Assembly: GCF_900142365.1 (NCBI RefSeq)
Contig: NZ_FRAP01000008.1
Span: 124,001 to 188,000, forward strand
DNA length: 64,000 nucleotides
From: Pseudonocardia thermophila
Lineage (GTDB): Bacteria; Actinomycetota; Actinomycetes; Mycobacteriales; Pseudonocardiaceae
Reading direction: 5' to 3'
The position numbers and the translations under genes were made by a program. Below the pieces are notes generated by a model, which was not told the origin of the DNA, searched no databases, and was given only the letters and a program-made list of their open reading frames with translations. Of this stretch, positions 25,216 to 63,284 are shown one piece after another. Position 1 is the stretch's first letter. Each line of letters starts with the position of its first letter.

Positions 25216-25278
25216 GCGAGTCCCGCGTTCGGGCGCGCGAGTCCCACGTCGGGCACGGCGAGTTCCGCACGTCGTGCG
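25216..25278 (+). repeat. GCGAGT array A, three 21-bp units
   Basis: Three tandem units start at 25216, 25237 and 25258, each opening with GCGAGT and followed by CCCGCGTTCGGG or a variant. The array starts 15 bp after the gtrA stop and reads in the gtrA sense. Units contain a small CCCG-CGTT-CGGG stem-loop. Confidence 0.85.
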
Positions 25279-25350
25279 CCACGGGATCCGCATCGCACTG
25301 TCGGGAAGCCCACGACTCGCCGGCACGGCAAGCGCAACCACCCCCGCCGG

Positions 25351-25430
25351 ACAGGGCAACTCGGCCTCCCCGGCAGGGCAACTCGCCCACCCCGGCAGGG
25401 CAACTCGCCCACCCCGGCAGGGCAACTCGC
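25351..25430 (-). repeat. GCGAGT array B, four 22-bp units on the minus strand
   Basis: GGGCAACTCG recurs at 25354, 25376, 25398 and 25420, an exact 22-bp period. Read on the minus strand each unit begins GCGAGTTGCCC. The unit nearest the histidine-kinase stop (25438) is 7 bp away, and the array runs in that gene's sense, mirroring array A across the spacer. Confidence 0.85.
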
Positions 25431-25437
25431 GGCCCGG

Positions 25438-26709
25438 CTACCGGGGGCTGGTCGCTCGCGGCGCCCCGACGAGGTCGTCGGCCCGGGCCGCGGGGAGGAA
25501 CACCGTGAACACCGGCGGGCGAGCCCGGGACAGCTCCAGCCGACCCCCGTCCGCCTCCACGAGCGCTCGCGCCAGCGCCAGCCCCAGCCCGGTCGACGAA
25601 CCGACGGAGACCCCGCGGTCGAACACGTGCGGCACCAGCTCCTCCGGGATCCCGGGCCCGCTGTCGGAGACCTCGATGAGGATCGAGTTCTCCGCCGCCC
25701 GAGCGGCGAGGACGACGGTGCCGTCGCCGTGCTGGATGGCGTTGTCGACCAGCGCCCCGACGGCCTCGCGCAGCCGCGCCGGGGTGACCCTGGCCAGCAG
25801 GCCGTCGGGCACCCGCAGCTTGAGCGAGCGGCCGGCGGCGCGCAGGGCCGGCTTCCACTCGTCGGCGACGGCCGTCAGCGTCGGGCGCAGGTCCTGCACC
25901 TCGGCCCCCGCCGACCGGGCCGCCCGCGCGGCCTCCAGCAGCTCATCGAGCACCTCGGTGAGCTTCTCGGTCTGCTCGAGCGCGGCGAGCGCCTCCCGCC
26001 GCGCGCTCTCGTCGGGGTGCGTGGCGAGCTCGTCCAGCCGCAGCTGCAGCGCCGTGATGCGGCTGCGCAGCTGGTGGGAGACGTCGCCGACGAGATCGCG
26101 TTCGCGCTGCAGCAACGCGGCCAGTGCGCTCGCGGAGGTGTCGAGGACGTCGGAGACGCGGTCCAGCTCCGGGATGCCGTACCGCTGCGGTGCTGCCCGG
26201 AAGTCCCCGGCACCGAGCCGGGCGGCGCGGTCTGCGACGTCGGAGAGCGGCCCGGCGAGCCTGCGCGCCGTCCAGATCGCGATGCCGGTGCCGGCCGCGA
26301 GGGACAGCACCACGAGCAGCACCACGACGAACGTCACCTGCAGCTGCTGGGTGCGCAGCGTCGTGTCCGGCTCAGCGATCGTGAGCGTCCCGCCGGGCGC
26401 GAACGGCAGGGTCTCGACGACCGACCTGCTCGGGTCCAGCTCCGGCCCGACGGCGAGCAGCTGCTCGCCGTCCTGCTCGATCACGAGCCGCCCCCCGGCC
26501 GGCAGCGCCAGCTCCAGCTGGGAGGCGTCCAGGGCGGCGAGCTCGTCGGGCTCGTCGACCCGGCTGGCGATCTGCTCGAGCGTGCCGGTCAGCTCGGCCC
26601 GGTTGACGTCCTCGACCAGCACCCACGTGGTGAAGGCGAGCGGCACGCCGAGGATCAGCCCCATGATCGTGACGACGATCAGGGTCGACTGGAGGATCCG
26701 CCGCCGCAC
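25438..26709 (-). CDS. Two-component sensor histidine kinase
   Basis: Membrane kinase of 423 residues. Transmembrane helices lie at about 8-30 and 122-145, with an extracytoplasmic sensor between them. HAMP follows, then HisKA with the phosphoacceptor in LVGDVSHQLRSRITAL. The HATPase domain has the N-box VGALVDNAIQHGDG, DSGPGIPEE and STGLGLALARALVE. Start GTG at 26709, 9 bp after the response-regulator stop, so the pair form an operon. The signal is unknown. A repeat array (B) begins 7 bp after its stop. Confidence 0.92.
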   Translation of the reverse strand: MRRRILQSTLIVVTIMGLILGVPLAFTTWVLVEDVNRAELTGTLEQIASRVDEPDELAALDASQLELALPAGGRLVIEQDGEQLLAVGPELDPSRSVVETLPFAPGGTLTIAEPDTTLRTQQLQVTFVVVLLVVLSLAAGTGIAIWTARRLAGPLSDVADRAARLGAGDFRAAPQRYGIPELDRVSDVLDTSASALAALLQRERDLVGDVSHQLRSRITALQLRLDELATHPDESARREALAALEQTEKLTEVLDELLEAARAARSAGAEVQDLRPTLTAVADEWKPALRAAGRSLKLRVPDGLLARVTPARLREAVGALVDNAIQHGDGTVVLAARAAENSILIEVSDSGPGIPEELVPHVFDRGVSVGSSTGLGLALARALVEADGGRLELSRARPPVFTVFLPAARADDLVGAPRATSPR

Positions 26710-26718
26710 CGCCCGCGC

Positions 26719-27375
26719 CTAGTCGTGGTTGAACCGGAACCCGACCCCGCGCACGGTGGCGATGCGGCGCTCGCCGCCGATCTTGCGGCGCAGCCACGAC
26801 ATGTGCATGTCGAGCGTCTTGGACGACTTCATGTCGGGGTCGTGCCAGACCTCGCGGAGGATCTCCTCCCGGGTGACGACCTGCCCGGCGCGCTGCATCA
26901 GCACACGCAGGAGCTCGAACTCCTTGTTGGCGAGGTTCACCTCGACGCCGTCGACGAGCACCCGCCGCCCCGACAGCTCCATCCGCACGCCACCGACCTC
27001 GATCGTCTCGGGAGTGAACCGGCGCAGCAGCGCCCGCACCCGGGCGAGCAGCTCGGCGAGCCGGAACGGCTTGCCGACGTAGTCGTCGGCGCCGGCGTCG
27101 AGCCCGACGACGAAGTCGACCTCGTCGGTCCGCGCGGTCAGCATCAGCACGGGCATGTCGGGGAAGTCGAGCCGGACCCGCCGGCAGACCTCCAGCCCGT
27201 CCATGCCCGGCAGGCCGAGATCGAGCAGCAGCAGATCGACGCAGCCGGCCCGCACCCGCTTCAGCGCGGTGATCCCGTCCTCTGCGACGTCGACTGCGTA
27301 GCCCTCCCTCTGCAGCGCTCGCGACAGAGGTTCGGCGATCGCCGCGTCGTCCTCCGCGAGCAGCACCGTGGTCAC
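26719..27375 (-). CDS. OmpR-family response regulator
   Basis: 218 residues: a receiver domain with acidic pocket (LLAEDDAA), phosphorylated aspartate in LLLLDLGLPGMDG, and the switch LTARTDEVDF with lysine in DYVGKPFRL. The C-terminal winged helix has NLANKEFELLRVLMQRAG and KTLDMHMSWLRRKIGGE, typical OmpR/PhoB. GTG at 27375 (MTTVLLAEDD); the far longer open frame upstream overlaps the divergent hisN gene and is not coding. Partner of the adjacent kinase; target genes unknown. Confidence 0.92.
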   Translation of the reverse strand: MTTVLLAEDDAAIAEPLSRALQREGYAVDVAEDGITALKRVRAGCVDLLLLDLGLPGMDGLEVCRRVRLDFPDMPVLMLTARTDEVDFVVGLDAGADDYVGKPFRLAELLARVRALLRRFTPETIEVGGVRMELSGRRVLVDGVEVNLANKEFELLRVLMQRAGQVVTREEILREVWHDPDMKSSKTLDMHMSWLRRKIGGERRIATVRGVGFRFNHD

Positions 27376-27396
27376 GTCCTCACTGTAGGCCCGAGG

Positions 27397-28206
27397 ATGA
27401 TGATCGGCGTGAGCCCCGATCTCGACCTCGCCCTTCGGCTGGCCGACGCCGCCGACGACGTGACGCTCGCCCGCTTCCGGTCGAGCGACCTGCGGGTCAC
27501 CAGTAAGCCCGACCGCACCCCGGTCACCGACGCCGACACCGCGGTGGAGTCCCGGCTGCGGGAGCTGCTGGCCGCGGAGCGGCCGGGTGATGTGATCCTC
27601 GGCGAGGAGGAGGGCGGTGCGGTCGCCGCGCAGGGGCGGGGCTGGGTGATCGACCCGATCGACGGGACGAAGAACTTCTCCCGCGGGCTGCCGGTGTGGG
27701 CGACGCTGATCGGGCTGACCGTCGACGGCGAACCCGTCGTCGGCGTGGCGAGCGCTCCCGCGCTGGGCAGGCGCTGGTGGGCTGCCCGCGGCGAAGGCGC
27801 CTGGACCGCCGGCCCGGACGGGGCGCCGCGCCGGATCGGCGTCTCCGGTGTGACCGATCTCGCCGACGCCTACCTGACCACCACCGACGCCCGGTCGTTC
27901 ACCGAGATCGGCAGGGCGGATCGGTGGCAGGCGCTCACCGCGGCCGTGTGGGAGACCCGCGCGTTCGGCGACTTCTGGATGTACTGCCTGCTCGCCGAGG
28001 GCGCCGTGGACATCGCCGTCGACGCGCTGGCCAACCCGTGGGACCTCGCCGCGCTCGTCCCGATCGTGACGGAGGCGGGCGGGCGCTTGTCCGACCTCGC
28101 CGGCGTCGACGGGTTCACCGGCGGCAACGGCCTGGCCACCAACGGCGCGCTGCACGACGCGGTGGTGCGCACCCTCACCCCCTCGGGGTTGCGCGACCGC
28201 CGGTGA
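27397..28206 (+). CDS. hisN: Histidinol-phosphatase, inositol-monophosphatase type
   Basis: Mg-dependent phosphatase of the IMPase fold; this subgroup dephosphorylates histidinol phosphate. 269 residues with the metal-site motifs EEEGG, WVIDPIDGTKNFSRG and NPWDLAALVPIVTEAGG. ATG at 27397 is given; GTG at 27409 is an alternative start with similar support. Divergent from the response regulator (21-bp gap). The specific hisN assignment rests on overall similarity (KPDRTPVTDADTAVE and the F-W-Y segment FGDFWMYCLLAEG), so another sugar phosphate is possible. Confidence 0.83.
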   Translation: MMIGVSPDLDLALRLADAADDVTLARFRSSDLRVTSKPDRTPVTDADTAVESRLRELLAAERPGDVILGEEEGGAVAAQGRGWVIDPIDGTKNFSRGLPVWATLIGLTVDGEPVVGVASAPALGRRWWAARGEGAWTAGPDGAPRRIGVSGVTDLADAYLTTTDARSFTEIGRADRWQALTAAVWETRAFGDFWMYCLLAEGAVDIAVDALANPWDLAALVPIVTEAGGRLSDLAGVDGFTGGNGLATNGALHDAVVRTLTPSGLRDRR

Positions 28207-28748
28207 CCAGCGCGTCGATGTCGATCCGCAGCGGGAGCAGCTCGGTCACGACCAGCTCGTGGGTCGCCGTCCGGCTCTCGCGGTAGCTGTCGCCCGGGGC
28301 ACCGAGCCCGAACACGGTGATCGTCGGCACCGGCGGATCGAGATCGACGACCCAGTAGTGCGGGATCCTCGCATCGGCGTCCTCGAACGCCTTCAGGTGC
28401 AGGTCGACGCCTGCGGGTACCGGGCGAGATGATCTCGACGGCGAGGAGGGCGTCGGCCCCGCGACCCCTTCTCCGGGCCGGCCACCGAGACGATCACCAG
28501 CTCCGGTGCACGGACCGTGGCCGGATGCTGTGCCTGGACGACCTCGAACTCGAGCAGGCGCTCCCGCCCCGAGGGGACCTGGGGCGCGATCCGGGCGCAC
28601 GACTCGCCCATCGAGCGTGAGCGCTTCCGCGCCGGCCGCGGGGACCCGACGAGCACCCCTCCTGCAGCTCGTAGCGCGCCGATTCGTCTTCGGGCAGCGC
28701 GTCGTACTCCTCGGTCGTCATCAGATCGCGGTGCAGCGGCGTGGCCAT
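28175..28748 (-). pseudogene. Uma2-family (DUF820) endonuclease-like gene, broken by frameshifts
   Basis: The protein is legible only by switching frame at least three times. The N-terminus (MATPLHRDLMTTEEYDALPE, from 28748) breaks near 28660; the middle (FEVVQAQHPATVRAPELVIV) breaks near 28460; a short ADALLAVEIISPGTR piece follows; and the C-terminus (KAFEDADARIPHYWVVDLDP) resumes near 28405. These are the normal order of Uma2 segments, so this is a degraded gene. Its end overlaps the hisN 3' end by 32 bp. Sequencing indels are a less likely alternative given three sites. Confidence 0.8.
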
Positions 28749-28798
28749 GCGGGCAGTGCGCCGCACCCGCCGTCCGGCGCGGGGCCGAACCGCCGATG

Positions 28799-29743
28799 TC
28801 AGCCGGCCAGCGCGCGCACCACCCGCGACGGCGACGGCCTGCCCAGCTGCTCGGCCATCCACGTGCTGGTCGCCACGAGCCGGTCGAGATCGACGCCGTG
28901 CTGGATGCCCAGACCGTCGAGCATCCAGACGAGGTCCTCGGTGGCGAGGTTGCCGGTGGCCGACTCGGCGTACGGGCAGCCGCCCAGCCCACCGGCCGAC
29001 GCGTCGACGGTGGTGACCCCGCGGCGCAGCGCGGCGAGGGTGTTGGCCAGCGCCTGGCCGTAGGTGTCGTGGAAGTGCACGGCGAGCTTGTCGACGCCGA
29101 TCCCGGCGGCGATGCACGCGTCCAGCACGGCGTCGACGTGGCCGGGGGTGCCGGTGCCGATCGTGTCGCCGAGGGAGATCTGCGCGCACCCGCCCTCGAG
29201 GAGCCGGGCGGCCACCGAGGCGACCTGGGCGGGCGCGACCGCGCCCTCCCAGGGATCGCCCCAGCACATCGACACGTAACCGCGCACGGTCAGCCCGGCC
29301 TCACGGGCCCGCTCCAGCACCGGCGCGAACATCTCGAACTGGGTGTCGAGTGTCCGGTTGAGGTTGCGCTCGGCGAACGTCTCGGTGGCGCTGGCGAACA
29401 CCGCGACGTGCGTGAGCCCGGCGGCGACGGCCCGGTCCAGCCCGCGCTCGTTCGGCACGAGCACCGGGTAGTCGACGCCGTCGCGCCGTTCCAGCACGGA
29501 GATCAGCTCCTCGGCGTCGGCGAGCTGGGGCACCCACTTCGGGTGCACGAAGCTGGTGGCTTCCAGCGTGGTGAGCCCGGCGTCGGCGAGCCGGCTCAGG
29601 AACTCCGCCTTCACCGAGACCGGAACGATCGTCTTCTCGTTCTGCAGTCCGTCGCGCGGGCCGACCTCGTAGATGGTGACGCGCTCCGGCAGGCCGTCCG
29701 TCGGCACCCGCATGGGCAGCGCCCTGGTCGTCTCGCTGGTCAT
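28799..29743 (-). CDS. mvaB: Hydroxymethylglutaryl-CoA lyase
   Basis: TIM-barrel lyase splitting HMG-CoA into acetyl-CoA and acetoacetate, the last step of leucine degradation. 314 residues with the catalytic YEVGPRDGLQNEKTI, metal-binding HFHDTYGQALAN and the cysteine signature GGLGGCPYA. ATG at 29743 is used (MTSETTRALPMR); ATG at 29713 is an alternative. Acetoacetate made here could be activated by the acetoacetyl-CoA-synthetase-like enzyme at 44-46 kb, which is inference. It lies 64 bp downstream of birA. Confidence 0.9.
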   Translation of the reverse strand: MTSETTRALPMRVPTDGLPERVTIYEVGPRDGLQNEKTIVPVSVKAEFLSRLADAGLTTLEATSFVHPKWVPQLADAEELISVLERRDGVDYPVLVPNERGLDRAVAAGLTHVAVFASATETFAERNLNRTLDTQFEMFAPVLERAREAGLTVRGYVSMCWGDPWEGAVAPAQVASVAARLLEGGCAQISLGDTIGTGTPGHVDAVLDACIAAGIGVDKLAVHFHDTYGQALANTLAALRRGVTTVDASAGGLGGCPYAESATGNLATEDLVWMLDGLGIQHGVDLDRLVATSTWMAEQLGRPSPSRVVRALAG

Positions 29744-29807
29744 CCTCGTCCGCCACTTCCTGGTAGAGCAGGGGCAACGAACGGACCTTAACCAGGAATC
29801 GGCGAGA

Positions 29808-30602
29808 TCAGGCCCGCGGCCGCAGGTGCACCACGTCACCTGCCGCGACGGCGCGGCGCGTGCCGGATTCGTCGAGCAGCAGCAGACGGCCGTCGACGTC
29901 GACGTCCTCCGCGATGCCGGTGAGCACGGCGCCGCCGGGGAGCTCCACCCGCACGGCGGAGCCGAGGCTCAGACAGCCCGCTCGGTAGTCGCCGCGCAGC
30001 ACCTCGGGATCACCGCGCCGCTCCCGCCAGACCTGCTCCCGCTCGGCGAGGTTGCGCAGCAGGGCGATCAGGACCGTGCTGCGGTCGGCGTCGATCCCCT
30101 CCGCAGCGAGCGAGGTCGCGTTGGGCTGCCCCTCGGGTACGGCGCCGACGTTCAGACCGATCCCGACGACGACCGCGTCGCCGGTCACCTCGGCGAGGAT
30201 GCCGGCGGCCTTGCGCGGCTCGGTGCCCATCAGCAGGTCGTTGGGCCACTTCAGGCCGGCGGGCACGTCGTCGTCGAGTTCGCGGATCGTGTCGAGCAGG
30301 GCCAGGCCGGCCAGCAGCGGCAGCCAGCCGTAGCGGGACGGCGATACGGTGGTCGGCCGCAGCAGCACGCTCACGGTGAGCCCGGTGCCGGGCGGCGAGA
30401 GCCACGTGCGGGCCAGCCGGCCCCGGCCGGCCTCCTGGTGCTCAGCGATCAGGACGCTGCGGTCCGGTGCGCCGCGCTCGGCGGCGGCGAGCAGATCAGC
30501 GTTGGTCGACCCGGTCCGCTCGACGATCTCGATGTGCGACCAGGCTCCCGCGAGCGTCGAACGAACCGCGTCCGCGTCGAGGTGCGCGGCTGTCCGGTTC
30601 AT
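29808..30602 (-). CDS. birA: Biotin-[acetyl-CoA-carboxylase] ligase
   Basis: Activates biotin as biotinyl-AMP and attaches it to carrier lysines, here most likely the EAMKMEN site of AccA3 at 40.8-42.6 kb. 264 residues with SIEI-type opening, ERTGSTNADLL, the nucleotide/biotin loop AGRGRLARTW and KWPNDLLMG. It lacks the N-terminal DNA-binding domain of the E. coli repressor form, so it is a ligase only. ATG at 30602. Position beside accD5 matches Rv3279c. Confidence 0.94.
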   Translation of the reverse strand: MNRTAAHLDADAVRSTLAGAWSHIEIVERTGSTNADLLAAAERGAPDRSVLIAEHQEAGRGRLARTWLSPPGTGLTVSVLLRPTTVSPSRYGWLPLLAGLALLDTIRELDDDVPAGLKWPNDLLMGTEPRKAAGILAEVTGDAVVVGIGLNVGAVPEGQPNATSLAAEGIDADRSTVLIALLRNLAEREQVWRERRGDPEVLRGDYRAGCLSLGSAVRVELPGGAVLTGIAEDVDVDGRLLLLDESGTRRAVAAGDVVHLRPRA

Positions 30603-30737
30603 GCCGCGGACGCTACCTGCGCGGGGAGCGGATCGCCGACCCGCGGACGGTGCATCTCCGCCGGGCGGCCGACGATCCGCGCCGGGCTGCACGCTCGTGC
30701 CGTTCGGCGATCGCACCGCCACGCCCGTCGCGCGCGG

Positions 30738-32552
30738 TCAGCCGGCGAGCGCCTCCGCCACCACCACGGCTGCTGCTGCGGACCACGCCTGCGGGCGGCA
30801 CGAGGTCGGGTACGGCACGGGCGCGGTGACCTCGTCCGACCCGAACCCGCCGAACAGCTCCGGCAGCCGCCACCCCAGTGCCGCGGCCGCGTCCAGCAGT
30901 TGCCCGGCCAGCAGCGCGGCGTGGTCGCGGTGCCCGGTGCGCAGCAGGCCGCGGATCGCGATCGCGGTGTCGTGCGGCCACACCGATCCGCAGTGGTACG
31001 ACAGCGGCGCGTACCCGCGGGCGGCCGCGGACATGGTGCGCAACCCGTAGCCGCTCGCCAGGTCCGGCTGCACGAGCCGGTCGGCGACGGCGGCGGTCTC
31101 GGCGTCGTCGAGCAGGCCGGTGCCGAGGAGGTGGCCGATGTTGCTGGTCGCGGTGTCGACCGGGCGCTTGGCACCGTCGAGCGCGAGCGCGGGGAACCGG
31201 CCGCGCTCGTCGGTCACCCAGAACGCCTCCCGGAACCGCCGCGCCAGCGCTGCCGCCCACTCCCGCCACGCCGTCCCGTCCCCGCCGAGCGCGTCGAGCA
31301 GCTCGGCCCCGGCGAGCGCGGCCTCGTGCGCGTAGCCCTGCACCTCACACAGTGCGACGGGGCCCTCGGCGATCCGCCCGTCCGGGAACTGCACCGAGGC
31401 GGCGGAGTCCTTCCACCCCTGGTTGACCAGGCCGTGGCCGCTCTCGTCGAGGTACTCCGCGAAGCCGTCGCCGTCGCGGTCGGCGTGGTCGCGCAGCCAG
31501 CCGAGCGCCGCGTCGAGGTTCGGCCGCAGCGCGGCCACGTCCGCGTCCGGCATGCCGTGCCGCCACGCGTCGCGCAGCAGCGTGATCCACAGCGGGGTGG
31601 CGTCGATCGTGCCGTAGTAGACGGGCGGCAGCACCAGCCCGCTGCCGTGCTCGGCGGTGCCGCGGCGGCGTTCGTGCAGGATCTTGCCGGGCTGCTCACC
31701 GGAGCCGGGATCGTGCCTCGTGCCCTGCAACCGGGCCAGCACGCGCAGGGTGCCGGACGCGATCCGCGGATCGACCGGCAGCAGCATCGTCGCCGCCCAC
31801 AGCGCGTCGCGCCCGAACAGGGTCAGGTACCACGGCGCACCCGCGGTGGCGAACAGGTCCGCGGATCGCGGCTCGGTCGCGATCAGCCCGTCGAGGTCCG
31901 CGTAGGACCGGTCGAGGAGGGCGGCGACGGCCCGATCGCGCGGCCGGCCACCGCGGCGCACCCGGGTCGGGGCCCCGACCACGACCGCGTCCGGGTCGGT
32001 GACGGCGAGCGTCCACCGCACCGCCGCCCGCTGCCCCGCCGCCACGGTGACCGGCCACGCCAGCTCCGCACCGTCCCGGGCCACGGTGATCTGCGCGCCG
32101 GGCGCAGCCAGCCGGGCCTCCACGGCGCCGGCCCGCCACACCAGCGCGCCGTCGTCGACGGCCGGCACCACGAGGTCGCGCTCCCGACCGGCACGCACGT
32201 CCGCCACCGGGGCGAGATCGCTGCCGACGGCCAGCCCGACGACCACGGCCACCTCCGCCGCCGAGGCGTTGTGCACCGTCAACGTCTCCGCGAGCCCGTC
32301 CGGTCGGACGTCCCGGCTGCGGTGCACCAGCACGTCCGGGTCGCGGCGGGCCCCGCGCACGAACCCGGCCTCCGGCCCCGCCGGCACCGGCTCCGCTCCG
32401 TCCAGGGTGACGACCGCGCGCGTGAGGACGCGCACGTCGCCGCAGATCACACCCTGCGCACCGGTACCGCGCAGCTGCCCGTCCGGACCGGTGAGGCAGA
32501 CGGTCGGGGCAGCGACGGCGACGGCGAGATCCTGCAGGTGCGGGGTGGCCAT
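30738..32552 (-). CDS. Amylo-alpha-1,6-glucosidase / glycogen-debranching-like enzyme
   Basis: 604-residue protein. The N-terminal half is the beta-rich domain found in glycogen-debranching enzymes ([17 protein letters not shown] and onward to residue 200); the C-terminal half is an (alpha/alpha)6 barrel with [47 protein letters not shown] and [18 protein letters not shown]. It probably acts on a branched or alpha-linked glucan; the exact bond is not given by sequence. ATG at 32552. Divergent from accD5 and inserted between birA and accD5 compared with M. tuberculosis. Confidence 0.82.
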
Positions 32553-55792: not shown

Positions 55793-55842
55793 CTCGGACA
55801 ACTTCTGTCCGAGAACATTACTCGGACTCATCATGTCCGAGT
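55793..55842. promoter_or_regulatory. Twin Rrf2-type operators
   Basis: CTCGGACA-N5-TGTCCGAG (55793-55813) and ACTCGGAC-N7-GTCCGAGT (55820-55842) are both perfect palindromes of the same half-site CTCGGAC. They are 14 bp from the NmrA-like start and 16 bp from the Rrf2 start, so they likely give autoregulation plus control of the neighbour. Confidence 0.85.
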
Positions 55843-55858
55843 CAAGTAGCCTGAGCCC

Positions 55859-56335
55859 GTGAAGCTGTCCGGCGGCGTGGAGTGGGCCCTGCACTGCTGC
55901 GTCGTGCTCACCGTCGCGCGCGCCCCCGTGCCCGCTGCCCGGCTCGCCGAGCTGCACGACGTCTCCCCGACCTACCTGGCGAAACAGCTGCAGGCGCTCT
56001 CCCGAGCCGGCCTCGTGAGGTCCGTGCAGGGCAAGGCGGGCGGCTACGCGCTCACGCGCCCGGCGTCGTCGATCACGGTGCTGGACGTCGTCGAGGCCAT
56101 CGACGGCCCAGATCCGTCGTTCGTCTGCACGGAGATCCGCCAGCGCGGCCCGCTCGCCGCCCCGCCGCAGCGGTGCACCGCGCCGTGCTCGATCGCCCGG
56201 GTGATGCACGAAGCCGACCGCGCCTGGCGGGAGTCGCTGCGCCGGGTCACGATCGCCGAGATCGCGGACGACGTCGCGGTCACGTCGGGGCCGGACACGC
56301 TGCCGACGGTCGCGAAGTGGCTGGACGAGGCCTGA
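55859..56335 (+). CDS. Rrf2-family transcriptional regulator
   Basis: 158-residue winged-helix regulator. HTH region VPAARLAELHDVSPTYLAKQLQ, wing VRSVQGKAGGYALTRPASSI, and later cysteines (FVCTEIRQRG, QRCTAPCSIAR) that could hold a 2Fe-2S cluster or act as a thiol switch, as in other Rrf2 proteins. GTG at 55859. Two identical-half-site palindromes precede it, facing the NmrA-like gene, suggesting redox- or electrophile-responsive control. Repeat array C begins 1 bp after its stop. Confidence 0.9.
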   Translation: MKLSGGVEWALHCCVVLTVARAPVPAARLAELHDVSPTYLAKQLQALSRAGLVRSVQGKAGGYALTRPASSITVLDVVEAIDGPDPSFVCTEIRQRGPLAAPPQRCTAPCSIARVMHEADRAWRESLRRVTIAEIADDVAVTSGPDTLPTVAKWLDEA

Positions 56336-56336
56336 C

Positions 56337-56449
56337 GCGAGTCCCCCGTTCCGCCCGCGCGAGTCCCGCATGCCGGCGCGCGAGTCGCGCGTTCAGACAG
56401 GCGAGTCCCCCGTTCCGCCCGCGCGAGTCCCGTGCTCGGGCGCGCGAGT
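56337..56449 (+). repeat. GCGAGT array C, six units of 21-22 bp
   Basis: Units begin at 56337, 56359, 56380, 56401, 56423 and 56444 with GCGAGT, mostly followed by CCCCCGTTCCGCC or CCCGTGCTCGGG. The first unit starts one base after the Rrf2 stop and reads in its sense. The longest plus-sense array in the window. Confidence 0.9.
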
Positions 56450-56569
56450 GTCTCACGCGGTCGGTCGAGACCGGCATCTCGGCCGACGAGCTGTCCCCAG
56501 CACGGCCCGCTGTCCACATGTCGATCTTCGCGTCTCCTCGGACCGCCCTGGGCACGGGACAGTACCGGC

Positions 56570-57739
56570 ATGCCCACGGTCCCCGACGGCCTGCACGGCG
56601 CGCATCTGCGGTCCGCACTCGTCGCGGCGCACGGCAAGGCCTGGCTCAGGAACGCGCTCGACAGCGGCGGGCTGCGCCCGATGTGGCGCGGCGTGGTCGT
56701 CGAGACCGCACGGCTGACGGACGTCTGGACGCGGGCCGCCGCGGCGCTGCTCACCACCGATCCGCGGGCGGTGATCACGCTGGAGACCGCGGCCGCCCTC
56801 CACGGCTGCACGGCGGTCGACACCTCGAAGACGCACGTCCTGCTCCCCTACGGATGCGGGACGCAACAGCCGGGACGGCCTGGTGGTGCACCACGGCGGC
56901 TACTACGAGGACGACGTCGTCGACCGCCCGCAGGGCTGCGCGTCCTGTGCAGCGAGCGGGTCGCAGCCGAGCTGCTCTGCTCCTCCCTGCCGCAGGACGG
57001 GATCGTCGTCGCGGACGAGGTCCTGCGCCGGGCGGGGGAGCACCACGAGCTCGCCTCCGCGCAGATCCTCAGCCGGATCACCCGCCGTGCCGATCCGCGG
57101 GGCACGGTGCGCACCAGGAACGTCCTGGACCTCGCCTCTCCCCGCGCCGAGTCGGCGCAGGAGAGCCGGCTGCGCATGATCCTGATCCAGCGCGGCTTCC
57201 CGCTGCCGGAAGTCGACTTCTGGGTGCAGGACGTGACCGGGCGCCGGGTCTGCCGCGTGGACCTCGCCTGGCCGGACGTGCGGATCGCCGTCGAGTACGA
57301 CGGTTACGAGGCCCACGTCGGGCGCGGGGCAGCGGATGCCGCGCGTGCCGAGGACCTGCACAGCCGCGGCTGGATCGTCATCCGGGTGGACAAGCACGAC
57401 ATGCGTGACCTCGGGCGGGTCGTGCGTGAGCTCGACGAGGCGTTCGCGGAGCGCGGGTACTCGTGGGTGCGGCGCGAGATGGCCGGTGACGCTCCTGACC
57501 AGGGATCCCACGCGGTCTTCGCCGCGCACGGTGAAGACCTCACCCGACCGAACGCGGGACTCGCCGCACAGAACGCGCAACTCACCCGACCGAGCGCGAA
57601 ACCACCGCACCGGACACGCGACTCGCCGGGCGGGGTGCAGGACTCGCGCTCCGCCCTCAGCCGCAGGGGCGGTTGCGCAGATCGCGGACGTAGTCGTCCG
57701 GCGCCCCCGCGGCCTCGGCCGCGTCGGCGAGGGTGTTGA
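56570..57739 (+). CDS. DUF559-type protein with AbiEi-like N-terminus, internally frame-damaged
   Basis: N-terminal segment (DGLHGAHLRSALVAAHGKAW, ETAAALHGCTAVDTSKTHVL) resembles AbiEi-antitoxin-like domains and the C-terminal half (IAVEYDGYEAHVGRGAADAA, WIVIRVDKHDM) a DUF559/Vsr-like nuclease fold. Between about 56856 and 56925 the frame carries nonsense, while frame +2 reads the expected VVHHGGYYEDDVVDR; a +1 and a -1 change cancel. Past about residue 312 it reads repeat array D and overlaps the next gene by 83 bp. ATG at 56570. Probably a damaged member of a common actinobacterial family. Confidence 0.6.
   Translation: MPTVPDGLHGAHLRSALVAAHGKAWLRNALDSGGLRPMWRGVVVETARLTDVWTRAAAALLTTDPRAVITLETAAALHGCTAVDTSKTHVLLPYGCGTQQPGRPGGAPRRLLRGRRRRPPAGLRVLCSERVAAELLCSSLPQDGIVVADEVLRRAGEHHELASAQILSRITRRADPRGTVRTRNVLDLASPRAESAQESRLRMILIQRGFPLPEVDFWVQDVTGRRVCRVDLAWPDVRIAVEYDGYEAHVGRGAADAARAEDLHSRGWIVIRVDKHDMRDLGRVVRELDEAFAERGYSWVRREMAGDAPDQGSHAVFAAHGEDLTRPNAGLAAQNAQLTRPSAKPPHRTRDSPGGVQDSRSALSRRGGCADRGRSRPAPPRPRPRRRGC
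57538..57647 (-). repeat. GCGAGT array D, about six degenerate 21-bp units
   Basis: On the minus strand, GCGAGT-like cores (some GTGAGT/GTGAGG) occur with a 20-21 bp period at 57642, 57621, 57601 (degenerate), 57580, 57559 and 57538. The array begins 9 bp after the GGCT-like stop (57657) in that gene's sense, and forms the C-terminal extension of the opposing DUF559 frame. Confidence 0.8.
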
Positions 57740-58097
57740 GGTAGCGGGCGCTGGGCAACCCGCCCTCGTAGTCGTTGAGCACGTAGATGTACGCGAGCAC
57801 GTCGCCGTCGAGCGTGGAGACCCGGACGCGCAGCTTCTTGTGCAGACCCAGCTCACCGCCTTCCCAGCGGTCGAGGTTGGCCGCGTCCTGCTCGGTGACG
57901 TCGTAGAGGACGACGAACACCTGCGAGTCCGGGTCCGGGACGACCGTGGAGAGGGCGCCTTGCCACGTGTAGTCGGCCCCGCCGAAGGTCAGCCGCCAGC
58001 CGACGAGCCAGCCCGTGCCCGCCATCGGCGAGTGCGGCGCCCGTTCCTTCATCTGCGCCGGGTCCATGTTCGACCCGTAAGCGGCGTAGAGCGGCAC
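57657..58097 (-). CDS. Gamma-glutamylcyclotransferase-like protein (Rv3304 type)
   Basis: 146-residue GGCT-fold protein: YAAYGSNMDPAQMKERAPHS carries the family YGSN loop. The usual catalytic glutamate region reads VTEQDAANLDRWEGG, with a plausible glutamate. Function of the group is unknown; activity on gamma-glutamyl peptides is possible. ATG at 58097. It is divergent from lpdA, as in M. tuberculosis Rv3303c-Rv3304. Confidence 0.85.
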   Translation of the reverse strand: MPLYAAYGSNMDPAQMKERAPHSPMAGTGWLVGWRLTFGGADYTWQGALSTVVPDPDSQVFVVLYDVTEQDAANLDRWEGGELGLHKKLRVRVSTLDGDVLAYIYVLNDYEGGLPSARYLNTLADAAEAAGAPDDYVRDLRNRPCG

Positions 58098-58132
58098 CGG
58101 TACAGGGTAGAGCGCCGCCCCCTGCGTACGGT

Positions 58133-59542
58133 ATGTGGGTGACCCGCATCGTGATCATGGGCGGTGGCCCGGCCGGATACGAAGCGGCACTGGTGGCCGC
58201 GCAGCACGGCGCCGACGTCACCGTCGTCGAGCGTGACGGCATGGGCGGCGCGTGCGTGCTGCACGACTGCGTGCCCTCGAAGACGCTGATCTCCTCCGCC
58301 GGCGCCCGCGTGGAGCTCGGCCGCGCGCCGGATCTGGGGCTCGCCGCGGACGAGCAGGCGATCGGGGTCGATCTCCCGACCGTGAACGAGCGGGTGAAGG
58401 GCCTGGCCCGCGCCCAGTCCGCCGACGTGCGGGCCCGCGTGGAGCGCGAGGGCGTGCGCATCGTGCGCGGCACCGCCGTGCTCGGCGAGAGCACCTCCGG
58501 CCGCGCGCCGCACACGGTCGTGGCCAACCTCCCCGACGGCGGCACTGAGCAGCTGTCCGCCGACGTCGTGCTGATCGCGACCGGCGCGACCCCGCGCATC
58601 CTCGACGACGCCAAGCCCGACGGCGAGCGCATCCTCACCTGGCGCCAGCTCTACGACCTGGAGGAGCTGCCGGAGCACCTGATCGTCATCGGCTCCGGCG
58701 TGACCGGTGCGGAGTTCGTCTCGGCGTACGTCGAGATGGGCGCTCGGGTCACCCTGGTGTCCAGCCGCGACCGGGTGCTGCCCAGCGAGGACGCCGATGC
58801 CGCCGCCGTGCTGGAGGACGTGTTCGCCGCCCGCGGCGTCGAGATCCTCTCCCAGGCGCGCGCCGAGTCGGTGCACCGCGACGGCGACGGCGTCGTGGTG
58901 ACGCTGGCCGACGGCCGCAAGGTCACCGGCTCGCACGCGCTGATGACCGTCGGATCGGTGCCGAACACGACCGGAATCGGGCTGGAGACGGTCGGCATCG
59001 AGACCAATCGGGGCGGGTTCATCCCGGTCGACCGGGTCTCGCGCACGAGCGTCCCCGGCATCTACGCGGCGGGCGACTGCACCGGCGTCATGATGCTCGC
59101 CTCGGTCGCTGCGATGCAGGGCCGGATCGCGATGTGGCACGCACTGGGCGAAGGCGTCGCGCCGATCAAGCTGAAGACGGTGGCCGCTGCGGTGTTCACC
59201 CGCCCGGAGATCGCCACCGTCGGCATCAGCCAGCGCGCGATCGACGCCGGTGAGGTCCCGGCCCGGACGATCATGATGCCGCTCTCGACGAACCCGCGCG
59301 CCAAGATGCAGGGGCTGCACCGGGGCTTCGTGAAGCTGTTCTGCCGCCCCGCGACGGGCGCCGTGATCGGCGGCGTGGTCGTGGCGCCGGTGGCGAGCGA
59401 GCTGATCCTGCCGATCGCGCTGGCGGTGCAGAACGGGCTGACCGTGGACGATCTCGCCTACACCTTCTCGGTCTACCCGTCGCTGTCCGGGTCGATCACC
59501 GAGGCCGGGCGCCAGCTGATGCGGCACGGCGACCTCGACTGA
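58133..59542 (+). CDS. lpdA: LpdA-type flavoprotein NAD(P)H reductase
   Basis: 469-residue pyridine nucleotide-disulfide oxidoreductase. FAD loop VIMGGGPAGYEAALVAA, redox segment GGACVLHDCVPSK with Cys41 and Cys46, second Rossmann VIGSGVTGAEFVSAYV, and YAAGDCTGVMM. The C-terminal catalytic His-Glu pair of true lipoamide dehydrogenases is missing: the spot reads VYPSLSGSITEAG. M. tuberculosis LpdA acts as a quinone reductase; from memory its first cysteine is absent, whereas here both are present. Likely a quinone or disulfide reductase rather than an E3. Confidence 0.88.
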   Translation: MWVTRIVIMGGGPAGYEAALVAAQHGADVTVVERDGMGGACVLHDCVPSKTLISSAGARVELGRAPDLGLAADEQAIGVDLPTVNERVKGLARAQSADVRARVEREGVRIVRGTAVLGESTSGRAPHTVVANLPDGGTEQLSADVVLIATGATPRILDDAKPDGERILTWRQLYDLEELPEHLIVIGSGVTGAEFVSAYVEMGARVTLVSSRDRVLPSEDADAAAVLEDVFAARGVEILSQARAESVHRDGDGVVVTLADGRKVTGSHALMTVGSVPNTTGIGLETVGIETNRGGFIPVDRVSRTSVPGIYAAGDCTGVMMLASVAAMQGRIAMWHALGEGVAPIKLKTVAAAVFTRPEIATVGISQRAIDAGEVPARTIMMPLSTNPRAKMQGLHRGFVKLFCRPATGAVIGGVVVAPVASELILPIALAVQNGLTVDDLAYTFSVYPSLSGSITEAGRQLMRHGDLD

Positions 59543-59554
59543 TCACTGGCCTGA

Positions 59555-60867
59555 TCAACCGGTCACGATGCCCTTCGCCCGGGCGGCGGCGAGCCAGCGC
59601 GGGAACTCGGCGAGCAGCAGATCGTAGAACCGGCCGTCGGAGATGTGGTCGGGGTTGCTCAGCCGGGCGAACCCGCAGTTGTCGACCAGGCGGATCTTCA
59701 TCGTGTCGAGCTTCGCGTAGCGGGTGAAGTCGGCCGAGCCCAGCCCGACGAACTGCCAGAACACCGGCTTGGCGGACGCGGCGCGCAGCAGCACGGACGT
59801 CTCGAGGTTGCGGCGCACACCGCCGTCGGCGAAGAACAGCACGAGCGTGGGGTCGCCGTGGGTCGCGGCGTGGTCGAGCACCGCTCGGATCGCGGCCGGT
59901 TCGTTGTTCCGCAGCCCGACGCCGTGGTAGTCCAGGCCCGCGATCCAGTCGCCGACCCGGTCGACGTGCAGGTCGGGCAGCTGCTGCGCGGTGTCGGCGA
60001 ACTTCCAGGCACGCACCACACCGATGTCGAGCACGGCCGCGATCGGCGCCACCCGCTCGACGATCCGCCCGACGACGCCGTCGACGTAGGCCAGGGACAT
60101 GGAGCCGGACGCGTCCAGGACGAGCACGACGCGAGCCCGGGCCCCGGCGCGCCGTTGCGGGCGAGGGTGTCCGCGATCCGCTGCTTGCGGGCCTCCAACT
60201 GCGGGTCCACCGGTGCGAGCTGCGGGGCGAACGGGAGCGGCGCGAGGTGGTCGGGCCACTCGGCGAGATCGGGGACGCGCGGCGGTGCCGGGCGGGGCAG
60301 CCCGACCGTCGGATCCTCCGCGGCGCCGGTCCGGGCACTCGCGACGGACGCGGGCTCGGGCTCCTCGTCGATCGTCACACCGAAGTCGGTGGCCAGCGCG
60401 GCCAAGCCGGCGTCGTAGCCCTGCCCGACGGCGCGGAACCGCCAGCCGTCCCCGCGCCGGTAGAGCTCCCCGCCGATCAGTGCGGTCTCGGTGCTCGCGG
60501 TGATCGGGAACTCGGCGATCGCCTCATCCGCGGCGGTGTCCAGCCGCAGCACGAGGTCCGCCACCTGTCCGAAGGTGCCCGCGTCGAGCAATGCGGCGAG
60601 CACGATCCGCTCGATCTCCGGCTCGACGCCGGGCAGATCGACCTCCACCGCGGGTCCGTCCTGGCGGACCGCGCCGGACAGGTGCCGCGGCTGGTTGTAG
60701 AAGACGAGATCGGCGTCGTCGCGCACCCGGCCGCCCGGGCCGAGCAGCAGCGCGGACACGTCGATCTCCGACAGGCCGTCGGTGGGCAGCCAGCTCAGCA
60801 CAGCCCGGAGTGGTGTCGTCGGGACGGGCGTGTTGGCGCCCGCTGTCAGCGACCTGGCCGGCGACAT
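59555..60867 (-). pseudogene. TerD-vWA fusion gene split by a frameshift
   Basis: The N-terminal TerD-type domain (about residues 1-165; AVLSWLPTDGLSEIDVSALL, DDADLVFYNQPRHLSGAV) begins at ATG 60867. The C-terminal vWA-TerF-like domain (VVLVLDASGSMSLAYVDGVV to TRYAKLDTMKIRLVDN) is in the -1 frame. The switch is near 60140, at CCGGGGCCCGGG, and joins cleanly after DTLARNGAPG. One missing base would restore the fusion known in actinobacterial tellurium-resistance-type loci. It could be a sequencing error, a real mutation or, less likely, programmed slippage (no canonical heptamer). Confidence 0.75.
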
Positions 60868-60968
60868 GTGCGTCAGTCTCGCAGCCGCGACCCGGGAGGG
60901 TCGCGACCAGGGATCGGCTCCGGGGCATCCCTGAGGATGTGCGCACCGCCTCAGCCGATGCTCGAGGT

Positions 60969-61325
60969 ATGACGATCCAACCCACCCAGCCCACCTCGTC
61001 GCAGGTGCCCGTCACCCCGGTGCTCGTCGCCGGGATCGGCGCGCAGCTGGTCGACGACCTGGCGTTCATCCTGCTCTCGCCGCTGGGCCTGCTCGGCCCG
61101 TTCGCCGCGGTGCTCGCGCTGGCTGCGACCGCGGCCGGCGCCCGCTACGTGACCCGCCGGGCCACCGGACCGGCGATCGCCCGCACCGGTCTGGCCGTCG
61201 GCCTCACGTCGGCGGCGGTCGGCCTGCTGATCAGCGGCCTCGGCCTGGTGCCGATCCTGATCGCCGGCCTGACGGTCGTCGCGGGTGTGGCGGGCGCGGT
61301 GATCGGCCGCGGCGTCACCGACTGA
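60969..61325 (+). CDS. Small membrane protein, unknown function
   Basis: 118 residues with a Pro/Thr-rich start and about three hydrophobic segments (VDDLAFILLSPLGLLGPFAA, ALALAATAAGARYV and LAVGLTSAAVGLLISGLGLV onward). No motif or family recognised. ATG at 60969 with GAGG very close, so the ribosome site is not ideal. Convergent with the NYN gene, overlapping it by 11 bp, and divergent from the TerD-vWA gene. Confidence 0.65.
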   Translation: MTIQPTQPTSSQVPVTPVLVAGIGAQLVDDLAFILLSPLGLLGPFAAVLALAATAAGARYVTRRATGPAIARTGLAVGLTSAAVGLLISGLGLVPILIAGLTVVAGVAGAVIGRGVTD

Positions 61326-62325
61326 CTTCCAGCCGGTAGTCGCCGACCGCGTCGTCCCACTCCATCGTCACGAGGCCGCGGGCGCGCGCCGCCTTCGTGA
61401 ACGCCGAGAACGTGTTGTAACCGTAGCGCTTCTCGCTGAACCCCGGCCACCGCTTGCGCAGCTGGTCCTTCAGCCCGGACAGCTGGGTGCCGCCCAGGTC
61501 TCGGACGACGTCGGCGAGCAGCCGGAACGCCTCGTCCTCTCCGCTGTCCTCGGGGAAGAACACCTCGGGATCGCCCGGCGCGGAGCCGGCCCGCAGCGCG
61601 ACCACGTGCTCGTCCGCCAGGTGGCGCAGCAGCTCGCCGAAGGCGCGGAAGCCGTGATCGGCCTCGTCGAACGTGGGGTCCTTGCGGAGGATGGCGCGCT
61701 TGAGCCGGGAGGCGTGGACCGGGCCGTCGGCGTGCCGGGCGAGCCCGGCGAGCGTGGCCGCGACGAGCTTGCCGACGTCGTCGCGCGCCGGCGGCACCTC
61801 CTCCGCGGCGGCGTCCGGCTCCTCGACGGGGGTGCGCTCGACGCCGGGCAGGCGGTCGTAGAACAAGAACTCGTCGCAGGCGGGCGGCAGGAGCTGCGAG
61901 GTCGACGACTGCACGCCGATCCCGATGACCCGCTTGTCCAGCTCACGCAGCTTGTGCACGAGCGGGGTGAAGTCGGAGTCGCCGGTGCCGATCGCGAACG
62001 TCGTGATGAACGACCGCTCGTAGGCCAACTCGATCGCGTCGACCGCCATCTTGATGTCGGCGGCGTTCTTGCGGGAGCCGCCGAGCCGCTGCGGGATGTC
62101 GATCAGCTCGACCTGGGCGCGGGCCAGCAGCCTGCGGTCTTCGTCGAACGACGACCAGTCGGCATACGCGCGGCGGATCACCACCCGGCCGCGCTCGGCC
62201 AGCGCGTCGGCCACCGGGCCGAACGCGAAGGGGCTGACGCCGAGCCCGTCGCGCGCGCCGATGGCGAGGTTCTCGTAGTCCAGGAACAGGGCGATCCGCT
62301 CGTCGTCGGAGATCACCCGGTACAT
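61315..62325 (-). CDS. NYN-domain nuclease with LOTUS/OST-HTH domain
   Basis: 336 residues. The N-terminal NYN (PIN-like) domain has its acidic residues in IALFLDYENLAIGARD, ADIKMAVDAIELAYERS and GTGDSDFTPLVHKLREL. The C-terminal part (from about 185) contains two OST-HTH-like blocks (FRAFGELLRHLADEH and SEKRYGYNTFSAFTKAARAR). The combination suggests an RNA-binding ribonuclease. ATG at 62325. Tail-to-tail overlap with the small membrane protein. Its target is unknown. Confidence 0.85.
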   Translation of the reverse strand: MYRVISDDERIALFLDYENLAIGARDGLGVSPFAFGPVADALAERGRVVIRRAYADWSSFDEDRRLLARAQVELIDIPQRLGGSRKNAADIKMAVDAIELAYERSFITTFAIGTGDSDFTPLVHKLRELDKRVIGIGVQSSTSQLLPPACDEFLFYDRLPGVERTPVEEPDAAAEEVPPARDDVGKLVAATLAGLARHADGPVHASRLKRAILRKDPTFDEADHGFRAFGELLRHLADEHVVALRAGSAPGDPEVFFPEDSGEDEAFRLLADVVRDLGGTQLSGLKDQLRKRWPGFSEKRYGYNTFSAFTKAARARGLVTMEWDDAVGDYRLEVSR

Positions 62326-62397
62326 CGTGGCACGTCCGGCGGCACAGCAGCGACAACACGACGGCCGGTGCGCGGGATGCGCACCGGCCGTCGATCC

Positions 62398-62898
62398 CTA
62401 GCCGGTTCCGGTCAGCGCTGGGGTCTGCGCCCGGCAACCACCGAGCGGGCAGAGCCCCGCGGGGGCCAGCGCCGTCCGCGGTGCTTGCGCGCTCACGCGG
62501 GCGAACGGCCACTGCCCGGCGAAGCGCTGCAGGTACCAGAAGAGGAACAGGTAGTCCGGTTGGGCGGGGTCGGTGACGAAGACCTTCTCCCCGGGTAGAT
62601 CCGCGATCCATCCGGTGAAGGCGATCATCGCCGGCGCGGGTGGGCGACTGCCGCGGCGGGTGGTGAGCCAGTCCTCGGCCCGGCGCCGCCACTGTTGGAG
62701 GGCGTCGGGGTGGAGTCCGGCACCGGGCAGCTCCCGTACGTTCACGGTGAACGCACCGAGCGCCTCCCCGTCCGCCGTGTGCGCGACGGAGACGACGCTG
62801 AGCAGCGAGTGCGGTCCGGGTATCGGCCCGTCGACGTGGATGTGGCTGGTCACGTACGACGCTGCGGGCGCAGGTTCAGCAGATGCTGCGGGGGGCAT
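62398..62898 (-). CDS. Degenerate DnaQ-like exonuclease homologue
   Basis: 166 residues. The overall pattern (HVDGPIPGPHSLLSVVSVA, PGAGLHPDALQQW, AFTGWIADLPGEKVFVTD, YLFLFWYLQRFAG) is that of a DnaQ-like 3'-5' exonuclease. But the first catalytic pair D-x-E is S-x-H (SHIHVDG), and the C-terminal catalytic His/Asp region is absent; it ends in LGGCRAQTPALTG. Probably inactive or a decayed gene. ATG at 62898 follows GAAGGA; GTG at 62853 is an alternative. Confidence 0.6.
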   Translation of the reverse strand: MPPAASAEPAPAASYVTSHIHVDGPIPGPHSLLSVVSVAHTADGEALGAFTVNVRELPGAGLHPDALQQWRRRAEDWLTTRRGSRPPAPAMIAFTGWIADLPGEKVFVTDPAQPDYLFLFWYLQRFAGQWPFARVSAQAPRTALAPAGLCPLGGCRAQTPALTGTG

Positions 62899-63284
62899 TG
62901 ACGGATCCTTCGTCGCCGGTGGTGATGGGGACGTGTTCACGACGCGGCGTGGCCAGCGTGGTGAACGGATCCGCGGCGCGGTCCAAGCGAGATTTGCCGC
63001 GTGGCGGAGCGCCGGGCCCCGTGGACGAATACACACGGGTGGTGCACTGCTCGAGTCCGCTATGCACTTGTCCAGCACGGCGCGGGCTCCGCAGCGGAAA
63101 CCCAGGCGAGCGCACCGTAGTCGGCAGCGCCGACGATCGTCAACGCCGGAGTCGATCGCGGCCCGGGCGCACGATTCGCGTGCCGACCGCGGGACTCGCG
63201 GGGACGGACGCGCGACACGCCCGACCGGACGCGGGACTCGCGCGACGAAACGCGAGACTCGCCGCCCGGCGAGGCTGGACCCGT
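62899..63284. other. 386-bp spacer, holds repeat array E only
   Basis: Apart from array E (63174-63262) I see no gene, RNA or promoter I can support. The 5' half is GC-rich upstream sequence of the exonuclease-like gene; frames crossing it are arginine- and serine-rich shadows. Confidence 0.6.
63174..63262 (-). repeat. GCGAGT array E, five units of about 21 bp
   Basis: On the minus strand, GCGAGT or near variants recur at 63257, 63236, 63215, 63194 and 63174 (spacing 21, 21, 21, 20), followed by CCCGCGTCCGG or similar. The array begins 22 bp after the M20 gene's stop (63285) in that gene's sense. Confidence 0.88.

What the first reader, a model, noticed from the sequence alone, without database searches (positions are those of the whole stretch)
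25216..63262. Five GCGAGT repeat arrays follow stop codons and are always in the sense of that gene
Arrays A (25216), B (25430), C (56337), D (57647) and E (63262) are built of 21- or 22-bp units with a GCGAGT core and a consensus near GCGAGTCCCGCGTTCGG. Their first unit lies 15, 7, 1, 9 and 22 nt after a stop codon (gtrA, histidine kinase, Rrf2, GGCT-like, M20). In all five the repeat reads in the coding direction, even where the gene is on the minus strand. The unit is 7 codons long and carries a small stem. The genes share no function, so the rule points to a 3'-end element (termination, mRNA stability, or read-through tail) rather than a gene-specific site. I know of no described class with this placement.
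Basis: seen in the sequence. Interest (0 to 1): 0.82.

Follow-up and report, generated by a model that had tools for sequence, protein, structure and literature searches.

The report
Two-turn GCGAGT arrays behind stop codons
Many bacteria of the Pseudonocardia-Amycolatopsis family carry rows of a six-letter DNA word, spaced two turns of the helix apart, directly behind the ends of genes, above all genes that run towards each other; this may be an unrecognised way of ending or insulating transcription.

Summary
Arrays A-E start 15, 7, 1, 9 and 22 nt after stop codons and all read in the sense of the gene. In a 1.64 Mb sample of the same genome I found 49 such arrays (reversed-sequence control: 1), none inside a called gene: in 18 of 110 convergent, 13 of 382 tandem and 1 of 232 divergent intergenic regions. 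Within 40 nt of a stop 30 of 30 are sense; within 100 nt 35 to 4. Cores recur almost only at 21 or 22 bp, so this is no reading frame.

The word GCGAGT(C/T) occurs in such arrays in 44 of 62 Pseudonocardia genomes and in other genera of the family, while the rest of the unit differs by species and locus. Outside this species the strand rule is only a bias (70:30). The unit hairpin is not supported. At the GGCT-M20 locus, arrays and hairpins tend to alternate; within this genome that tendency is weak.

Best reading, moderate confidence: a 3'-end barrier, probably protein-bound, doing a terminator's job mostly between convergent genes. Close rival: a tolerated REP-like repeat without function. 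The papers I could search do not describe it.

The parts
25216..25278 (+). Array A: 3 exact cores (25216, 25237, 25258), 15 nt after the gtrA stop
25315..25430 (-). Array B: facing array of another tail type (GCGAGTTGCCCTGCCGGGGTGG); exact cores at 25425-25430, 25403-25408, 25381-25386 and 25315-25320; 7 nt after the histidine kinase stop
56337..56449 (+). Array C: 6 exact cores, 1 nt after the Rrf2 stop
57539..57647 (-). Array D: exact cores at 57642-57647, 57621-57626 and 57559-57564 plus degenerate units, 9 nt after the GGCT stop
63159..63262 (-). Array E: exact cores at 63257-63262, 63236-63241 and 63194-63199 plus degenerate units, 22 nt after the M20 stop
24673..25200 (+). GtrA-like gene (PF04138); start uncertain
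25438..26709 (-). sensor histidine kinase, convergent with gtrA
55859..56335 (+). Rrf2 regulator
56570..57451 (+). remnant of a DUF559-type gene in two frames between arrays C and D; PF04480 matches the 3' piece only
57657..58097 (-). GGCT/AIG2-like gene
63285..64000 (-). M20 peptidase, runs off the window; in many relatives the convergent neighbour of GGCT

Best explanation
The arrays are a 3'-end barrier that does the work of a terminator or insulator, mainly between convergent genes. Inferred mechanism: a trans-acting protein conserved in the family binds GCGAGTY on one face of the DNA every two helical turns, and the row of bound proteins just behind the stop codon halts RNA polymerase before it runs into the opposing gene. 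Shown: placement, two-turn spacing, common core with free tails, strand bias, and alternation with hairpins at one orthologous locus. Inferred: the protein, termination itself, and polarity of the block.
For: 49 arrays, none in called genes; convergent 18/110, tandem 13/382, divergent 1/232 (p=9e-6 and 7e-9). Sense arrays sit at the stop, 38 of 39 in the near half. In this species 30 of 30 stop-adjacent arrays (<=40 nt) are sense and 15 of 15 opposed neighbouring pairs are -> <-. Next-core distance is 21 (78) or 22 (60), while 20, 23 and 24 together give 3; 22 in G009 and 21 in Amycolatopsis-type stretches (these were fetched on a 20-23 bp pattern). The same core occurs with unrelated tails in 44 of 62 Pseudonocardia genomes; position 7 is C or T in 99% of 224 array units. 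GGCT-M20 locus across genomes: stem of 11 or more pairs in 3 of 20 loci with array cores against 11 of 16 convergent loci without (p=0.002). Own convergent regions: hairpin excess over shuffles in 3/18 with array against 45/106 without (p=0.04). 18 of 62 genomes have no triple match, 6 have 1-7 and 38 have 11-220, and the label changes about 5 times on a gene tree against 16.3 for shuffled labels, as expected if a trans factor is gained or lost.
Against: No transcript or protein data. Only 18 of 110 convergent regions carry an array, so it cannot be the general terminator. Outside this species the strand rule weakens to 70:30 and <- -> pairs are common; Amycolatopsis-type genomes give 12:8, not significant. 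Arrays come and go at orthologous genes: of 8 array-bearing genomes looked at, none has an array directly behind dinG and 3 (a fourth has one core) behind pepA, whereas this genome has them at both. The hairpin evidence is modest: in this genome it depends on the measure (by plain stem length of 10, 11 or 12 pairs p=0.45, 0.19, 0.11); across genomes it is uncorrected for relatedness, the 16-locus group was chosen after seeing the table, and all 49 genomes give p=0.06. No binding protein is known and I could not search for one systematically.
Confidence: 0.38

Rival explanations
1. A tolerated or selfish repeat of REP or satellite type. It spreads and is homogenised within each genome by slippage, gene conversion or an unknown transposition enzyme, and survives only where it does no harm, behind stop codons and away from promoters. 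The core is conserved because the spreading machinery needs it.
For: Tails are species-specific while the core is constant. Patchy distribution and turnover at orthologous genes. Other repeat families occupy the same kind of place in relatives. Published REPs also prefer convergent and unidirectional 3' sides (PMC3733652, passages).
Against: Mere tolerance does not explain 30:0 strand polarity at stops in this species or the narrow 21/22 bp spacing. No Y1/RAYT transposase in this genome and in only 5 of 62 genomes of the genus.
Confidence: 0.35
2. Facing arrays act as RNA. A transcript that runs through both arrays folds into a long imperfect stem, which ends transcription or protects the mRNA 3' end in both directions. 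Polarity of the unit is secondary, so -> <- and <- -> both work.
For: Facing arrays in this genome pair better with each other than with swapped arrays of the same genome: 11 of 15, mean 11.5 kcal/mol, p=0.008. Tail identity of facing arrays 0.53 against 0.48 between loci, p=0.018. Explains why both layouts occur elsewhere.
Against: Many arrays have no partner. Kinship of neighbouring arrays by local copying gives the same signal. In G009 4 of 6 pairs, p=0.22, and tail identity p=0.12. The two mixed sets compare different species and do not count. Single units do not fold. Does not explain two-turn spacing.
Confidence: 0.12
3. A topological site: a gyrase, HU-like or other wrapping protein uses the phased array to relieve positive supercoils between convergent genes, as proposed for enterobacterial BIME-2 (recalled).
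For: Convergent preference and two-turn phasing.
Against: Wrapping does not predict a non-palindromic invariant core or strand polarity. A/T positions within the unit are not spaced by one turn (column table, read by eye).
Confidence: 0.1
4. Read-through tail: the arrays extend the protein when the stop codon is passed.
For: 21 bp is seven codons.
Against: 22-bp units are nearly as common as 21 in this genome and are the usual spacing in the other Pseudonocardia looked at, so the frame shifts at each unit.
Confidence: 0.01

Closest known systems
REP / BIME elements (GTAG- and CGTC-tagged families, PMC3733652)
   Same: Short, high copy, extragenic, mostly downstream of coding regions and between convergent or unidirectional genes; neighbouring units often in opposite orientation; functions proposed are termination, mRNA stabilisation, supercoiling.
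   Different: REPs are palindromes with a GTAG or CGTC tag and are linked to RAYT transposases. Here the unit is a non-palindromic direct repeat in 21/22-bp tandem, tails vary freely, and no Y1 transposase is found in this genome.
TAACTGA direct repeats of Beggiatoaceae and others (PMC4679880)
   Same: Intergenic runs of a short word in a defined direction relative to the neighbouring gene, missing at the same place in some close relatives.
   Different: In the main genome described there the 7-mers abut and mostly point towards start codons; here the words are two helical turns apart and follow stop codons.
Oriented protein-bound terminator arrays of eukaryotic rDNA (Sal box / TTF-I, Reb1; recalled)
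   Same: A row of short oriented sites just behind a transcription unit; the suggested mode of action.
   Different: Functional analogy only; nothing here shows homology, a protein or termination.
Mycobacterial MIRU / VNTR minisatellites (recalled)
   Same: Tandem, intergenic, actinobacterial, said to be oriented with the neighbouring genes.
   Different: MIRU units are about 46-101 bp and nearly identical; here 21-22 bp with only the core kept.
Intrinsic (hairpin) bidirectional terminators
   Same: Same sites, the convergent intergenic regions; at the GGCT-M20 locus they alternate with arrays.
   Different: No stable unit stem and no T tract in the array.

Membership tests
REP / BIME | unit is a palindrome able to form a stem | tested here: not met
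   224 units: mean -6.18 kcal/mol against -6.49 (sd 0.12) with swapped tails
REP / BIME | GTAG or CGTC tag at one end | tested here: not met
   the conserved core is GCGAGTY
REP / BIME | RAYT (Y1 transposase, PF01797) in the genome | tested here: not met
   0 in this genome, 5 of 62 in the genus
REP / BIME | high copy, extragenic, convergent or unidirectional 3' position | tested here: met
Intrinsic terminator | G+C-rich stem followed by T tract | tested here: not met
   none found at arrays A-E (regions 24000-27000, 55800-58200 and 62800-64000); no unit stem
Intrinsic terminator | ends transcription | not testable with these tools
   needs Term-seq or a reporter
Satellite / VNTR | near-identical tandem copies | tested here: inconclusive
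   mean tail identity within arrays 0.55 (own) and 0.62 (G009); some arrays are near-perfect, e.g. G007
MIRU | unit of about 46-101 bp (recalled) | tested here: not met
   21 or 22 bp
Coding tail | unit length a multiple of three | tested here: not met
   78 of 21, 60 of 22
Ends of a DUF559 mobile element | DUF559 gene between or beside the arrays in general | tested here: not met
   5 hits of a DUF559 profile in the searched stretches, 4 of them within about 1 kb of an array, against 156 array-bearing stretches; DUF559 numbers are 2-12 in genomes with and without arrays (one has 1)
Known RNA family | Rfam match at the arrays | tested here: not met
   the only match in the window at gathering threshold is Ms_IGR-5 at 22590-22794

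The most novel reading that the evidence does not exclude
Pseudonocardiaceae have a dedicated, protein-dependent, polar 3'-end system. One DNA-binding protein reads GCGAGTY every two turns and sets the end of transcription between convergent genes in place of hairpin terminators. The sites evolve in concert within each genome and vanish together when the factor is lost.
Probability: 0.24. Interest if true: 0.87.

Novelty: new variant of a known kind. Interest (0 to 1): 0.61.

Why it matters
Many high-GC actinobacterial genes lack textbook hairpin-plus-T-tract terminators (recalled). A sequence-defined element at convergent 3' ends, with a widely shared core and a comparison set of related species that lack it, makes the question of how such genes end testable by one reporter and one pull-down. 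If it is only a tolerated repeat, it is still a bacterial case of dispersed short arrays whose tails change together within a genome while a 6-7 bp core and a two-turn spacing stay.

Tried and rejected
Naive strand test: in convergent regions every array is 'sense' to its upstream gene by definition, so I replaced the first count (42 sense, 9 antisense) by tests of position and of the array nearest each stop. One search counted single arrays that fill a short region as antisense at their far end; one search leaves out convergent arrays whose far edge is within 45 nt of the other stop. My 40-nt cut just misses antisense arrays that one search places at 41, 42 and 49 nt, so other cuts are given: <=60 nt 32:2, <=100 nt 35:4.

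Exceptions in this genome: antisense arrays C15:201210, C15:314125, C14:238588, C6:86450 and C6:108152, one array in a divergent region (C15:71334), and four antisense partners of -> <- pairs in tandem regions. One of the four (C15:259214) has a 115-codon open frame ending 4 nt before it, so the caller probably missed a gene; for the others I saw no convincing missed gene.

Unit hairpin: rejected. DUF559 element ends: suggested by the GGCT-M20 locus, rejected in general. RAYT/REP: rejected. Read-through frame: rejected.

Hairpins. In this genome the difference is significant only as excess over five mononucleotide shuffles (3/18 against 45/106, p=0.04); by plain stem length it is not (stem>=11: 4/18 against 42/106, p=0.19). 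An array-less genome (G027, 160 kb) gave too few cases: 6 convergent regions, 4 with a hairpin. At the GGCT locus all 49 genomes with a readable end gave p=0.06; leaving out rows where M20 is not a convergent neighbour within 400 nt gave 11/16 against 3/20 (p=0.002), a choice made after seeing the table. There a locus counted as having an array even with one exact core within 40 nt of the stop (G080, G031, G069, G005). Five of the 16 loci without array are in genomes that have matches elsewhere, one of them (G016) very many. dinG and pepA orthologues (12 array-free and 8 array-bearing genomes each) did not give a second matched test, because arrays are rare there and many regions are not convergent.

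Limits: genes are called by my own codon model, with no annotation. The own-genome sample covers 27% of the genome, on contigs chosen because one search listed hits there, so density may be too high; strand and position counts should not be affected. Arrays in relatives were fetched because they match GCGAGT at 20-23 bp, so core invariance and spacing there are partly by construction; the unbiased evidence is from this genome. The 224 units include some from outside the family and some duplicate loci. The GGCT tree is one 145-column gene, with the own row on a long branch.

Literature: the searches found no description of these arrays; only open-licence PMC papers are held, and of most hits I saw the listing only.
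Full report
WHAT IS THERE. The window comes from a Pseudonocardia: its genome shares the genus with G012 and G068, whose contig lengths equal those of P. eucalypti and P. oceani records (inference from equal lengths). It is C5:124001-188000 of a 6.10 Mb draft. The unit is a GCGAGT core plus a tail. In this genome the tail is near C(C/G)CGCGTTCGG.

GENOME SAMPLE. I took 1.64 Mb of contiguous stretches, called genes with a codon model and searched for chains of cores. There are 49 arrays of 3-12 units against 1 in the reversed sequence, none inside a called gene. They occur in 18 of 110 convergent, 13 of 382 tandem and 1 of 232 divergent intergenic regions of at least 60 bp (convergent against tandem p=9e-6; against divergent p=7e-9). 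Sense arrays start close to the stop: of 39, 38 lie in the near half and the median relative position is 0.07. The distance from one core to the next on the same strand is 21 (78 cases) or 22 (60), then 42-45 (19); 20, 23 and 24 together give 3. Without naming the word beforehand, GCGAGT is the top recurring intergenic hexamer at 15-30 bp in this genome.

STRAND RULE, PROPERLY TESTED. In a convergent region any array is formally sense to its upstream gene, so I scored only the outermost array at each stop codon. In this species 30 of 30 arrays within 40 nt are sense, and 15 of 15 opposed neighbouring pairs are -> <-. At 60 nt it is 32:2, at 100 nt 35:4. In other genomes (63 convergent, 58 tandem and 2 divergent array-bearing regions) it is 70:30 (p=8e-5), with 17 pairs -> <- and 14 pairs <- ->. 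Amycolatopsis-type genomes give 12:8 and include abutting <- -> arrays, where the two cores overlap as ACTCGCGAGT. The rule is strict in this species and a bias in the family.

DISTRIBUTION. Three cores at 20-23 bp occur in 44 of 62 Pseudonocardia genomes, against 0 or 1 per genome for the reversed pattern; 18 genomes have none, 6 have 1-7 and 38 have 11-220. In the family 78 of 249 genomes and 25 of 46 genera have a match; by my count 17 genera have a genome with 10 or more (leaving out one whose reversed control is higher). Outside the family the sampled genomes of the order show 0-3 each. Tails differ between species and often between arrays of one genome, while position 7 is C or T in 99% of 224 units. 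On a GGCT tree of 50 genomes the label 'more than 5 matches' changes 5 times against 16.3 in shuffles. So arrays were probably lost or gained wholesale a few times.

ONE LOCUS THROUGH THE GENUS. In many relatives GGCT (behind which D lies) and M20 (E) are convergent neighbours. Of the 18 array-free genomes, 10 have a GGCT-M20 gap of 53-195 bp, 9 of them with a hairpin of 11-24 pairs; one has a 5-bp gap, two have other DNA between, and in five M20 was not seen beside GGCT in the stretch fetched. Of 20 loci scored as having array cores, 18 have the first core 1-14 nt after the GGCT stop, with the local species' tail; of the 13 with M20 seen on the other side, 12 have inverted cores within 200 nt of its stop. 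In 10 of these the gap is 1.1-1.3 kb and holds an open frame resembling the window's DUF559 remnant (by eye; a profile of six of them hits the remnant). A stem of 11 pairs or more was found in 3 of 20 array loci and 11 of 16 convergent loci without (p=0.002; p=0.06 if every readable genome is kept). Within this genome, convergent regions with an array show an excess hairpin in 3 of 18 cases, those without in 45 of 106 (p=0.04), but by plain stem length the difference is not significant (p=0.11-0.45). The two devices may replace each other; the evidence is modest.

THE WINDOW'S LAYOUT EXPLAINED. The present order is Rrf2> C> [DUF559 remnant] <D <GGCT ... <E <M20. Turning round the stretch between C and E, which are inverted repeats of the same family, gives the order seen in several relatives: homologue of the 58133 gene, GGCT, array, DUF559-type frame, array, M20. 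D and E are therefore probably the two facing arrays of one old convergent region, split by an inversion at arrays C and E. This is inference from gene order.

HOW IT MAY WORK. The unit does not fold better than chance, the frame is broken, and no transposase of the REP kind is found in this genome. What is kept over the family is a 6-7 bp core and a spacing of two helical turns, as expected of a protein that binds one face of DNA. Polarity towards the stop codon in this species, the convergent preference and the alternation with hairpins at one locus point to stopping RNA polymerase. I give 0.38 to a bound-protein barrier. The main rival (0.35) is a tolerated REP-like repeat: arrays occupy a minority of convergent regions and turn over between species. 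A long RNA stem between facing arrays has some support in this genome (11 of 15 pairs, p=0.008), but relatedness of neighbouring arrays gives the same signal.

KNOWN OR NEW. The closest described class is REP/BIME. PMC3733652 (passages read) reports the same convergent and unidirectional 3' placement; the palindrome, tag and RAYT tests fail here. PMC4679880 (passages) describes oriented intergenic TAACTGA runs, in its main genome mostly before start codons. PMC12306157 (counts and one passage) lists three Actinomycetota in a table and has no occurrence of Pseudonocardia, Amycolatopsis or Streptomyces in its main text. PMC6749651 (outline and passages) counts 23 satellites in Amycolatopsis mediterranei; in what I read it gives no unit for them. 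None of the searches showed a paper that describes these arrays. I therefore call it a new variant of a known kind.

Noticed in passing
window 56570-57451: Remnant of a DUF559-type gene in two frames between arrays C and D; in ten relatives a similar frame of about 1 kb sits between the GGCT and M20 arrays.
   Followed up: partly
window 56337-63262: Arrays C and E are inverted repeats; the gene order fits an inversion of the stretch between them relative to other Pseudonocardia, so arrays may promote local rearrangement. G004 (L406) and G033 (L347, L384) show other gene orders with arrays at or near the junctions.
   Followed up: partly
window 22590-22794 (-): Match to Rfam Ms_IGR-5, an actinobacterial small RNA (102 bits).
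   Followed up: no
L450 (G018); L418, L419, L420 (G078, G023, G017): Other repeats at the same kind of place, seen by eye: ACACGGGGTGC-type repeats in G018; CGCAACCTCACTGCTG ... AGGTTGCG repeats in array-free Pseudonocardia.
   Followed up: no
G349, G461, G374, G532: The reversed control pattern (TGAGCG at 20-23 bp) is itself found 17-46 times per genome in some Pseudonocardiaceae, which suggests arrays with other cores.
   Followed up: no
L219, L302, L307: Amycolatopsis-type arrays abut as <- -> with overlapping cores.
   Followed up: partly
window 61315-62325 (-): NYN-domain protein with an OST-HTH/LOTUS domain; a protein matching vWA-TerF-like lies at 59555-60127.
   Followed up: no
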